Shown here: positions 229 through 61,965 of the stretch, one piece after another
How the letters are laid out: each line of letters opens with the position of its first letter
Position numbering within the stretch: the stretch's first letter is position 1
Assembly: GCA_963662155.1 (NCBI GenBank)
Contig: OY759270.1
Span: 56,210,374-56,274,373 of the forward strand
DNA: 64,000 nucleotides
Origin: Lamellibrachia columna
Lineage: Eukaryota > Annelida > Polychaeta > Sabellida > Siboglinidae
Reading direction: 5' to 3'
The notes under the pieces: model-generated
What the model saw: the letters and a program-made list of their open reading frames with translations, nothing else
The model's database searches: none
Told to the model about the DNA's origin: nothing
Program-made: the position numbers and the translations under genes

Positions 229-3200
229 CTGCAACAAACGTCATATGGGTGAAGGTCAAGTCATCAGTTACCATGGAGACAGCAACAGTGTTAAAAATTG
301 TCACTGCCAACACATTGAAAAATTATTATTGATCTCATTTTATAATTACTGTGGGTTTCCTCGAGTCACAATGCCCTTTTGTTTGCCACCATCATATCAC
401 TGTTGCTGTACTTACTGTGTTTGGAACTCATACAGGATGGTTTATTACAGTTTTCCTTCTCTATACATATAGTTGGTGAGTCCATGGATAGGTTACACAT
501 TTACCCCCCTTTTGGATCTTTTATGTCCCTTGGCATAGACACCAGGTAGAAGGGACCAAAGGTTTCTCTTCTGAAAGACAGTCAATATGAGGTGAATGAA
601 GTTGCCCAAGTTTTGAAATGGCAGCCGCTGGACTCAATCCCAGGTCCTCTCAATGGCAGTCAGTGGACTCAATCCCAGGTCCTCTCAATGGCAGTCAGTG
701 GACTCAATCCCAGGTCCTCTCAATGGCAGTCAGTGGACTCAGTCCCAGGTCCTCTCAATGGCAGTCAGTGGACTCAATCCCAGGTCCTCTCAATGGCAGT
801 CAGTGGACTCAGTCCCAGATCCTCTCAATGGCAGCCGGTGGACTCAGTCCCAGGTCCTCTCAATGGCAGCCGGTGGACTCAGTCCCAGGTCCTCTTAGTT
901 CAAAGTCTGGCATTCTACCGCCAAGCGACATTAATTTAAAATTAATTTCAATTAATTAACAACTCACTAATCATGTAACATATATATTTTAAGCACTACA
1001 TTCCATATTTTTGGCATAAAAACCAGCATGTGTTGAAAATTCCAGTAATTTGTGACACTGGTTTAGCTGTGGTTCCAGGAGGTATGGTTTAGATGTGGTT
1101 CCAGGAGGTATGGTTTAGATGTGGTTCCCGGAGGTATGGTTTAGATGTGGTTCCAGGAGGTATGGTTTAGATGTGGTTCCAGGAGGTATGGTTTCGATGT
1201 GGTTCCAGGAGGTATGGTTTAGATGTGGTTCCAGGAGGTATGGTTTAGATGTGGTTCCCGGAGGTATGGTTTAGATGTGGTTCCAGGAAGTATGGTTTAG
1301 ATGTGGTTCCAGGAGGTATGGTTTCGATGTGGTTCCAGGAGGTATGGTTTAGCTGTGGTTCCAGGAGGTATGGTTTAGATGTGGTTCCAGGAGGTATGGT
1401 TTAGATGTGGTTCCAGGAGGTATGGTTTAGCTGTGGTTCCAGGAGGTGTGGTTTAGATGTGGTTCCAGGAGGTATGGTTTAGCTGTGGTTCCAGGAGGTA
1501 TGGTTTAGCTGTGGTTCCAGGAGGTGTGGTTTAGATGTGGTTCCAGGAGGTGTGGTTTAGATGTGGTTCCAGGTGTGGTTTAGATGTGGTTCCAGGTGTG
1601 GTTTAGATGTGGTTCCAGGTGTGGTTTAGATGTGGTTCCAGGAGGTATGGTTTAGATGTGGTTCCAGGAGGTATGGTTTAGATGTGGTTCCAGGAGGTAT
1701 GGTTTAGCTGTGGTTCCAGGAGGTATGGTTTAGATGTGGTTCCAGGAGGTGTGATTTAGATGTGGTTCCAGGAGGTATGGTTTAGCTGTGGTTCCAGGAG
1801 GTATGGTTTAGCTGTGGTTCCAGGTGTGGTTTAGATGTGGTTCCAGGAGGTGTGGTTTAGATGTGGTTCCAGGAGGTGTGGTTTAGATGTGGTTCCAGGT
1901 GTGGTTTAGATGTGGTACCAGGTGTGGTTTAGATGTGGTTCCAGGAGGTATGGTTTAGATGTGGTTCCAGGAGGTATGGTTTACATGTGGTTCCAGGAGG
2001 TATGGTTTAGCTGTGGTTCCAGGAGGTATGGTTTAGATGTGGTTCCAGGAGGTATGGTTTAGATGTGGTTCCAGGAGGTATGGTTTAGATGTGGTTCCAG
2101 GAGGTATGGTTTAGATGTGGTTCCAGGAGGTATGGTTTAGCTGTGGTTCCAGGAGGTGTGGTTTAGATGTGGTTCCAGGATGTATGGTTTAGATGTGGTT
2201 CCAGGTGTGGTTCAGATGTGGTTCCAGGAGTGGTTTAGATGTGGTTCCAGGAGGTGAGGTTTAGATGTGGTTCCAGGTGTGGTTCCAGGAGGTATGGTTT
2301 AGATGTGGTTCCAGGAGGTATGGTTTAGATGTGGTTCCAGGAGGTATGGTTTAGCTGTGGTTCCAGGAGGTATGGTTTAGATGTGGTTCCAGGAGGTATG
2401 GTTTAGATGTGGTTCCAGGATGTGTGGTTTAGCTGTGGTTCCAGGAGGTATGGTTTAGATGTGGTTCCAGGAGGTATGGTTTAGCTGTGGTTCCAGGTGT
2501 GGTTTAGATGTGGTTCCAGGAGGTATGGTTTAGATGTGGTTCCAGGAGGTGTGGTTTAGCTGTGGTTCCAGGTGTGGTTTAGATGTGGTTCCAGGGAGTA
2601 TGGTTTAGATGTGGTTCCAGGAGGTATGGTTTAGATATGGTTCCAGGAGGTATGGTTTAGCTGTGGTTCCAGGAGGTATGGTTTAGACGTGGTTCCAGGA
2701 GGTATGGTTTAGATGTGGTTCCATGAGGTGTGGTTTAGCTGTGGTTCCAGGAGGTATGGTTTAGATGTGGTTCCAGGAGGTATGGTTTAGCTGTGGTTCC
2801 AGGAGGTGTGGTTTAGATGTGGTTCCAGGAGGTATGGTTTAGATGTGGTTCCAGGAGGTGTGGTTTAGCTGTGGTTCCAGGTGTGGTTTAGATGTGGTTC
2901 CAGGAGGTGTGGTTTAGATGTGGTTCTAGGTGTGGTTTAGATGTGGTTCCAAGAGGTATGGTTTAGCTGTGGTTCCAGGAGGTGTGGTTTAGATGTGGTT
3001 CCAAGAGGTATGGTTTAGCTGTGGTTCCATGTATGGTTTAGCTATGATTCCAGGAGAACATAAGACAGACCTGCGTCTGTGTGAATACTTGGGCTCGGTG
3101 ACACTCCTCCAGACATGGTGCTATGGCAACCATCACGTTCTCCTCACTCCCAACCATCTGTACAATCTCCTGGTCCGTCTCAATGCCCATGGCTCGTAGT

Positions 3201-3846
3201 ATGATCACAATAGGCATGTCCTGTAACACAGTGCAAATAGGATAACGATAGGCATGTCCTGTAACACAGTGCAAATAGGTTCACGATAGGCCGGTCCTGT
3301 AACACAGCACAAACAGGATCACGATAGGCATTTCCTGTAACAAAGTGCAAATAGGATTACGATAGGCACATCCTGTGACACAGTGCAAATAGGATCACGA
3401 TAGGCATGTCCTGTAACACAGCGCAAAAAGGATCAAGACAGGCATGTTTTGTAACACAGTGCAAAAAGGACTACGATAGGCATGTCCTGTAACACAGTAC
3501 ATATAGGATCATGATAGGCATGTCCTGCAACACGGTACAGATAGGATCATGATAGGCATATCCTGCAACACAGTACAAATGTTTGTTTTAAATAGTCATG
3601 CGTCCTACAAATCAACATCTGCATTATATGCAGATGAATATGCATAAAATACAAAAGAATGCATTATGAAATAGATTTGAAGTTTTTATTGCTGCTTCAC
3701 GACATTTCACATTATAATAAAATTTATATGCTTCACATTGTTTAAATTTATTTATTAATAGATTTTTTATCCTATCATCATAATTGTTTATGTAATATTA
3801 AAATTTGTATTATTTATAGCACCATATGATATGACTGTCCAGATTA

Positions 3847-61827: not shown

Positions 61828-61965
61828 CAGTGCACTAATGCTGACTGGATGCTACACAACAGATGGTTGACTGCTCTTGGGACGAGACTGTCCAAGTCTA
61901 CACTCCATCATCCAACTGTGCCACCAGGTAGCAGTGCACTAATGCTGACTGGATGCTACACAACA
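61756..61965 (+). repeat. 104-bp tandem duplication of the last PEX7 exon
   Basis: Copy 1 (61756-61859) contains the CAG acceptor end, exon 10 and 3' sequence; copy 2 follows directly, with one base change seen (GTCAAAGTC to GTCCAAGTC, Lys to Gln). The stop in copy 1 makes copy 2 part of the 3' UTR unless its own acceptor is used. Confidence 0.95.
61759..61827 (+). CDS. PEX7: PEX7 exon 10 (stop)
   Basis: Residues 298-319: MVDCSWDETVKVYTPSSNCA, TR, then TAG. The acceptor is CATGTTTCAG. The family C-terminus is ADCSWDETIKIYDP-like. A second copy of the exon lies 104 bp downstream. Confidence 0.93.
   Translation: MVDCSWDETVKVYTPSSNCATR

What the first reader, a model, noticed from the sequence alone, without database searches (positions are those of the whole stretch)
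3071..61965. Minisatellites repeatedly grow out of exon-intron junctions and copy the splice sites
In both genes, tandem arrays start at splice junctions and include the real splice signal plus 12-25 exon bases: POLR3B exon 7 donor (50-bp unit), POLR3B exon 8 acceptor (38 bp), PEX7 exon 7 acceptor (44/74 bp), PEX7 exon 9 donor (51 bp), PEX7 exon 3 acceptor (triplet). Arrays also start at the POLR3B exon 4 acceptor and within about 10 bases of the PEX7 exon 2 and 4 donors, and the whole last PEX7 exon is duplicated. Units and sequences are unrelated to each other, so this looks like a recurrent process acting at junctions, not spread of one repeat. Possible causes (inference): transcription-linked or R-loop breaks, or selection for redundant splice sites. 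I know of no described system of this kind.
Basis: partly seen in the sequence, partly recalled or inferred. Interest (0 to 1): 0.88.

Follow-up and report, generated by a model that had tools for sequence, protein, structure and literature searches.

The report
Splice-site minisatellites in tubeworm genes
In two housekeeping genes of what is likely a deep-sea tubeworm, short tandem repeats span or touch six exon-intron junctions and copy the splice signals there; such repeats are known from lancelets, and these are likely harmless by-products of a genome full of tandem duplications, because the copy next to the exon would still splice normally.

Summary
POLR3B (exons 1-9, minus strand) and PEX7 (10 exons, plus strand) have 34 complete exon-intron junctions here. 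Five arrays contain exon bases, one ends exactly at the acceptor AG, four more start within 14 nt. In four arrays most copies score like authentic donors or acceptors; the copy abutting the exon gives the conserved protein.

The novelty claim fails. The same structure is published as "mirages": minisatellites spanning exon-intron boundaries in amphioxus genes. This locus is not amphioxus; PEX7 and POLR3B are 98% and 96% identical over just over half their length to Lamellibrachia satsuma and Ridgeia piscesae proteins, so it is likely a vestimentiferan tubeworm. Ten paper searches listed no tubeworm report.

A junction-directed process is not needed for the spanning arrays. Arrays fill 60% of the introns. 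With each array collapsed to one unit, chance predicts 1.8-3.4 spanning arrays against 5 seen (P 0.03-0.23). Array edges do lie nearer junctions than chance, out to 200 nt. Decoy signals are not consistently better conserved than other columns, which argues against selection for redundancy.

Best reading: random tandem duplication plus splicing tolerance. A genome-wide test with RNA was not possible.

The parts
4425..5074 (-). 50-bp array, 13 copies, spanning the POLR3B exon 7 donor (exon ends at 5052; 23 exon bases inside the array); 12 of 13 copies keep the GT, the farthest copy has AT
   Evidence: TRF; units; donor-like scores
3203..3580 (-). 38-bp array, 10 copies, spanning the POLR3B exon 8 acceptor (exon starts at 3220; 18 exon bases inside); 9 of 10 copies keep the AG
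56730..57901 (+). 74/44-bp array, 23 units, ending in PEX7 exon 7 (exon starts 57887; 15 exon bases inside); 17 of 23 keep the CAG in register; distal units are the longer 74-bp form
60448..60953 (+). 51-bp array (first copy 45 bp), 10 copies, spanning the PEX7 exon 9 donor (exon ends 60462; 15 exon bases in the unit); all 10 copies keep CAG-GTAATG and the array is open in frame
61756..61966 (+). 104-bp two-copy duplication of the whole last coding exon of PEX7 with its CAG; copies differ at 1 of 104 bases; CAG flanks both breakpoints
39575..39618 (+). 15-bp triplet ending exactly at the PEX7 exon 3 acceptor AG; AGs 15 nt apart, in frame
38081..38287 (+). 41-bp array starting 2 nt inside the intron after the PEX7 exon 2 donor; does not copy the junction
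45779..50377 (+). 65-bp array, 70 copies, starting 14 nt after the PEX7 exon 4 donor; does not reach the junction
7275..9183 (-). 40-bp array ending 1 nt from the POLR3B exon 4 acceptor; copies lack the AG
   Evidence: sequence
1059..3056 (-). 26-bp array starting 14 nt from the POLR3B exon 8 donor; not in the finding
112..16444 (-). POLR3B exons 1-9 (16444-16376, 11815-11726, 9359-9295, 7273-7198, 6922-6822, 6161-5952, 5133-5052, 3220-3071, 228-112)
28623..61827 (+). PEX7 exons 1-10 (28623-28731, 37900-38078, 39619-39654, 45687-45764, 50837-50945, 54582-54691, 57887-58000, 59633-59688, 60363-60462, 61759-61827)

Best explanation
Six of 34 exon-intron junctions in POLR3B and PEX7 lie in or abut tandem arrays that repeat the splice signal, and these are likely 'mirage'-type minisatellites that began as chance tandem duplications and would persist because the copy next to the exon still splices correctly. 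Shown: the arrays, the copied signals, an exon-edge copy that gives the conserved protein, and no array lying wholly inside an exon (the last exon is duplicated whole). Inferred: tandem duplications arise more or less anywhere in this repeat-rich genome; those inside exons are removed by selection, while one that spans a junction leaves an intact exon edge and turns all other copies into intron. Also inferred: the unused copies then expand and drift like any other intronic array, and splicing picks the exon-abutting copy by exon definition.
For: Arrays make up 60% of intron bases (28,624 of 47,618). All 139 exon bases in arrays sit at exon edges or in the duplicated last exon (139; 23+18+15+14+69 from the edges). 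Nulls with arrays collapsed to one unit expect 1.8-2.8 (4 variants), 2.7-3.3 (12 variants), 3.4 and 1.9 spanning arrays against 5 seen; about 2.4 wholly exonic arrays would be expected without a filter and 0 are seen (P(0)=0.08). The exon-abutting copy gives the reading colinear with RPC2, Ridgeia POLR3B and two other POLR3B proteins, and with PEX7 relatives (three of four reach past exon 6). Splice-signal columns drift like the rest: identity 0.96 v 0.954, 0.95 v 0.903, 1.0 v 0.994, 0.89 v 0.965. In the POLR3B exon 7 array, difference from the authentic copy grows with distance from the exon (rho 0.91); the PEX7 exon 9 edge copy lacks 6 bp that the nine other copies have. The near-identical exon 10 duplication is flanked by a CAG microhomology. 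Strong donor-like sites also fill an array over 100 nt from any junction (9629-11617, 30 copies). Published mirages are reported not to disturb splicing (passages of PMC3087553 and PMC3902484).
Against: Array edges are nearer junctions than the same null predicts: gap <=14 nt 10 seen, 4.7 expected (P 0.003); gap <=150 nt 19 of 32, 11.6 expected. Two of 18 collapsed variants are nominally significant for spanning arrays (P 0.041; 0.032, one variant; another variant there gives 0.052). Counting the abutting sixth array, gap <=0 is 6 seen, 3.5 expected (P 0.11). The distance gradient holds clearly in 1 of 4 arrays; the others give rho 0.51, 0.44 and -0.32, none significant. No RNA from this animal was available, so use of the decoys is unknown.
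Confidence: 0.66

Rival explanations
1. A process aimed at junctions: transcription- or splicing-linked breaks (R-loops, pausing at splice sites) seed tandem duplications there more often than elsewhere.
For: Edges within 14 nt at 10 of 34 junctions against 4.7 expected; 5-6 junction arrays with unrelated units in two genes; same structure in a distant phylum.
Against: Spanning arrays alone are close to chance. The edge excess extends to 200 nt, so it is not specific to splice sites; insertions in intron middles, such as the inverted-repeat element and tRNA-like hit in PEX7 intron 1, would give it too. GC skew of the six arrays has mixed sign. The thresholds and the locus were chosen after seeing the pattern.
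Confidence: 0.2
2. Redundant splice sites are selected for: extra donors and acceptors back up or tune splicing.
For: Decoys score like the authentic site in 4 of 6 arrays; at PEX7 exon 3 they are weaker than it (at most 9.3 against 12.0) but above the weakest authentic acceptor. PEX7 exon 9 and exon 3 decoys stay in frame.
Against: GT/AG columns are not consistently better conserved. Use of decoys in the 50-, 38- and 44-bp arrays shifts the frame (unit lengths not multiples of 3); the POLR3B exon 7 extension and the three-unit extensions of POLR3B exon 8 and PEX7 exon 7 meet stops, though one- and two-unit extensions of exon 8 and the one-unit extension of PEX7 exon 7 do not. The second PEX7 exon 10 copy has no acceptor as strong as the weakest authentic one.
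Confidence: 0.05
3. The junctions or arrays are wrong: assembly error, or the true exon edges lie elsewhere.
For: Long arrays are hard to assemble; no RNA here. The L. satsuma PEX7 model in the database ends by reading through the exon 6 donor (P0092).
Against: The modelled exon edges agree with RPC2, Ridgeia POLR3B and PEX7 relatives; copies differ from each other by substitutions and indels. Copy numbers may still be off.
Confidence: 0.04
4. The arrays are intermediates of intron gain, as proposed for amphioxus globin mirages: a copied exon piece later becomes a real exon.
For: The model is published (passages of PMC3087553); the PEX7 exon 9 array is open in frame through its ten copies.
Against: No extra exon is seen: the proteins are colinear with relatives across the arrays.
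Confidence: 0.05

Closest known systems
'Mirage' minisatellites of amphioxus (Adh3, globins BflGb6/BflGb9, troponin C, PGBD5)
   Same: [quoted passage not shown] PMC3902484).
   Different: Different phylum: likely a vestimentiferan tubeworm, not amphioxus (amphioxus PEX7 55% identical). Five or six in two genes of one window. Splicing and length instability untested here.
Minisatellite giving multiple splice donor sites in a human interferon-induced transcript (Turri, Cuin and Porter 1995)
   Same: A minisatellite that repeats the donor (known to me from its title in reference lists; the paper itself is not held).
   Different: Details recalled only; by its title the extra donors are provided to the transcript, here their use is unknown.
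Tandem duplication of AGGT segments as a source of introns; dual-specific splice sites in tandem-repeat genes
   Same: Splice signals multiplied by tandem duplication (PMC10809524, passages; PMC4974935, search listing only).
   Different: There the repeats make or delimit introns in coding sequence; here the arrays sit at junctions whose flanking protein is colinear with relatives and no new intron is seen.

Membership tests
Mirage minisatellites | Tandem array spans an exon-intron boundary and includes exon bases | tested here: met
   5 of 34 complete junctions; a sixth array abuts with no exon base
Mirage minisatellites | Both donor and acceptor edges can be affected; unit about 10-160 bp | tested here: met
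   2 donors, 3 acceptors (4 with the abutting one); units 15-104 bp
Mirage minisatellites | Many but not all copies keep AG/GT signals | tested here: met
   12 of 13, 9 of 10, 10 of 10 and 17 of 23 copies, authentic one included, in four arrays
Mirage minisatellites | Regular splicing is not disturbed | not testable with these tools
   No RNA; only colinearity with relatives' proteins
Mirage minisatellites | Length polymorphism, somatic instability | not testable with these tools
   One haplotype only
Mirage minisatellites | Homogenisation inside the cluster, edge copies excluded | tested here: inconclusive
   PEX7 exon 9 edge copy differs from the nine others by 6 bp; clear distance gradient in 1 of 4 arrays
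Mirage minisatellites | Occurs in amphioxus (taxon of description, not a structural criterion) | tested here: not met
   PEX7 98% to Lamellibrachia satsuma over 53%, 55% to Branchiostoma

The most novel reading that the evidence does not exclude
Exon-intron junctions are hotspots for minisatellite birth in animals: a duplication process tied to transcription or splicing keeps seeding arrays at splice sites, independently in lancelets and tubeworms, and floods introns with working decoy splice sites that exon definition must overrule.
Probability: 0.17. Interest if true: 0.8.

Novelty: new member of a known kind. Interest (0 to 1): 0.42.

Why it matters
It would extend mirage minisatellites from lancelets to a second, distant animal phylum and show them at high density in ordinary housekeeping genes. 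Each array is a natural test of how the spliceosome chooses one site among ten or more nearly identical ones, most sharply at the acceptor arrays, where the decoys come first in the transcript. The locus also shows that the right null for such claims must remove the intron growth caused by the arrays themselves.

Tried and rejected
Uniform placement of array edges in present introns gave an overwhelming excess; so did unit placement in full-length introns (expected 0.8-0.9, P(>=5) 0.001-0.002). I rejected these as the main test because arrays supply 60% of intron length, and used collapsed-intron nulls instead. R-loop polarity (GC skew) and selection on decoy signals were tested and not supported. 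One mobile repeat as the source was tested and rejected: no cross hits at E<=1 among six unit consensuses. Amphioxus as the source was considered because of the mirage papers and rejected. Ten paper searches (10 of 10) listed no report of splice-spanning minisatellites in tubeworms or annelids; two of these lists were capped (20 of 269, 15 of 67). Passages found by term in the Ridgeia (12 of 13 places), L. luymesi and Paraescarpia (no occurrence) genome papers mention none. Most subscription papers are not held, so this is weak negative evidence. Rfam found one tRNA-like hit and ARAGORN none; neither bears on the question. Nominal P values carry selection bias: the locus was picked because of the pattern, and the 14-nt threshold follows the finding.

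Full report
What is there. The window holds the first nine exons of POLR3B on the minus strand and all ten coding exons of PEX7 on the plus strand, head to head, about 12 kb apart; the space between holds transposon ORFs. PEX7 reads as one open frame of 319 residues and POLR3B exons 1-9 as 320 residues, colinear with RPC2 chain 7a6h_B (human by recall) at E 1.2e-162. PEX7 is 98% identical over 53% of its length to a Lamellibrachia satsuma protein (P0092) and POLR3B 96% over 58% to a Ridgeia piscesae protein (P0224), so the animal is likely a vestimentiferan tubeworm. Amphioxus PEX7 is 55% identical.

Repeats are everywhere. Tandem Repeats Finder marks 30,758 of 64,000 bases in 47 merged arrays, and 28,624 of 47,618 intron bases once one array edge is extended by hand.

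Junctions. Seventeen complete introns give 34 junctions; a thirty-fifth (POLR3B exon 9 donor) runs off the window and has no array in the bases seen. Arrays contain exon bases at five: POLR3B exon 7 donor (23), POLR3B exon 8 acceptor (18), PEX7 exon 7 acceptor (15), PEX7 exon 9 donor (14-15; TRF alone starts 4 nt into the intron) and PEX7 exon 10 (the whole coding exon, 69). At PEX7 exon 3 a 15-bp triplet ends at the AG. Four more arrays begin 1, 2, 14 and 14 nt away. Of these four, the PEX7 exon 2 donor and POLR3B exon 4 acceptor arrays do not copy the junction dinucleotide.

Copies. Printed units show the copied signals. With matrices built from the 18 donors and 17 acceptors of these two genes, sites at or above the weakest authentic one, the authentic site included, number 13 at POLR3B exon 7 (12 copies have GT in register, so one lies outside it), 9 at POLR3B exon 8, 10 at PEX7 exon 9, 17 at PEX7 exon 7, 4 in and just upstream of the PEX7 exon 3 triplet (the authentic one clearly best), and only the authentic one at PEX7 exon 10. 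The PEX7 exon 7 acceptor is itself the weakest authentic acceptor. The matrices were trained on the same authentic sites, so the scores are a like-for-like comparison, not independent proof of strength.

The authentic copy abuts the exon. The exon-edge copy gives the protein colinear with relatives: LKHNTLSE-DMPIVI across POLR3B exons 7-8, SKYDK-SLVVTG across PEX7 exons 6-7, NLHIPGQ-MVDCSW across exons 9-10 and ANSQ-VPVKS across exons 2-3. The L. satsuma PEX7 model is informative only up to exon 6, where it reads into the intron.

Is it more than chance? Against uniform placement in today's introns, 6 of 34 junctions at gap zero or less compares with 0.13 expected. That test is misleading, because the arrays lengthened the introns. 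Placing one unit per array at random in introns from which arrays are removed gives expectations of 1.8-2.8 (four collapsed variants, P 0.03-0.13), 2.7-3.3 with array numbers held per intron (twelve variants, P 0.10-0.22), 3.4 without overlap (P 0.23) and 1.9 with exons included (P 0.04), against 5 seen. Two of these 18 variants fall below 0.05. Edges are another matter: 10 within 14 nt against 4.7 (P 0.003), but also 19 of 32 within 150 nt against 11.6 and 20 within 200 nt against 13.0 (the 32 leaves out the one intron without an array). So arrays tend to lie toward intron ends in general; this is not a splice-site effect as such, and insertions in intron middles would produce it.

Selection on the decoys. 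Identity of the signal dinucleotide against other columns is 0.96 v 0.954, 0.95 v 0.903, 1.0 v 0.994 and 0.89 v 0.965 in the four multi-copy arrays. There is no consistent extra conservation. Use of decoys would shift the frame for the 50-, 38- and 44-bp units; the 51-bp and 15-bp arrays stay in frame and open.

How it likely works. Tandem duplication is common in this window. A duplication inside an exon would break or lengthen the protein; one across a junction need not, because one intact copy still abuts the exon and the others become intron. Such arrays are then free to grow. This fits the absence of wholly exonic arrays (about 2.4 expected, P(0)=0.08), the polarity in the POLR3B exon 7 array (rho 0.91; not significant in the other three), the odd edge copy at PEX7 exon 9 and the CAG microhomology of the near-identical exon 10 duplication. 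That splicing ignores the decoys, and does so by exon definition, is inference.

Known kind. The same structure was named 'mirage' in amphioxus Adh3 and described in globin genes; the authors note other loci, both boundaries, units of 10-160 bp, no interference with regular splicing by RT-PCR, length and somatic instability, and an unclear mechanism (passages of PMC3087553). PGBD5 and troponin C add cases (passages of PMC3902484). A human minisatellite with multiple splice donors is known to me by title. The present case is a new member, in a likely annelid, at high density. My ten paper searches listed no tubeworm report, in a library that lacks most subscription papers.

Limits. One window, two genes, one haplotype, no RNA, no genome-wide count: the own-genome search was unanswered seven times.

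Noticed in passing
9629-11617: POLR3B intron 2 holds a 66-bp array with 30 sense-strand donor-like sites at or above the authentic median (TTAG-GTAAGT), more than 100 nt from either exon. Decoy donors are tolerated in bulk away from junctions too.
   Followed up: partly
60463-60969: The PEX7 exon 9 array is one open frame in phase with the exon, so every decoy donor would add VMNLMSSSLSLCHIPGQ-type repeats rather than a frameshift.
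   Followed up: partly
16733-27758: Inverted repeats 16733-16812/27679-27758 (90%) and 16969-17044/27520-27595 (95%) enclose reverse transcriptase ORFs (17022-18725, 24444-26276), an endonuclease ORF (23546-24469) and a MULE/FLYWCH ORF on the minus strand (19541-20971): a large or nested mobile element between the two genes.
   Followed up: partly
31451-34025: A broken inverted repeat (arms within 31451-32088 and 33436-34025, four pieces, 91-94%) inside PEX7 intron 1, perhaps a folded-back or terminal-inverted-repeat element.
   Followed up: no
34047-34130: tRNA-like Rfam match (31.5 bits, E 0.012) in PEX7 intron 1, not called by ARAGORN; perhaps a tRNA-derived SINE.
   Followed up: no
P0092 (Lamellibrachia satsuma PEX7 model): The database model stops by reading through the exon 6 donor and lacks exons 7-10, the part that holds three junction arrays here. 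Arrays may be spoiling gene prediction in these genomes; not tested.
   Followed up: partly
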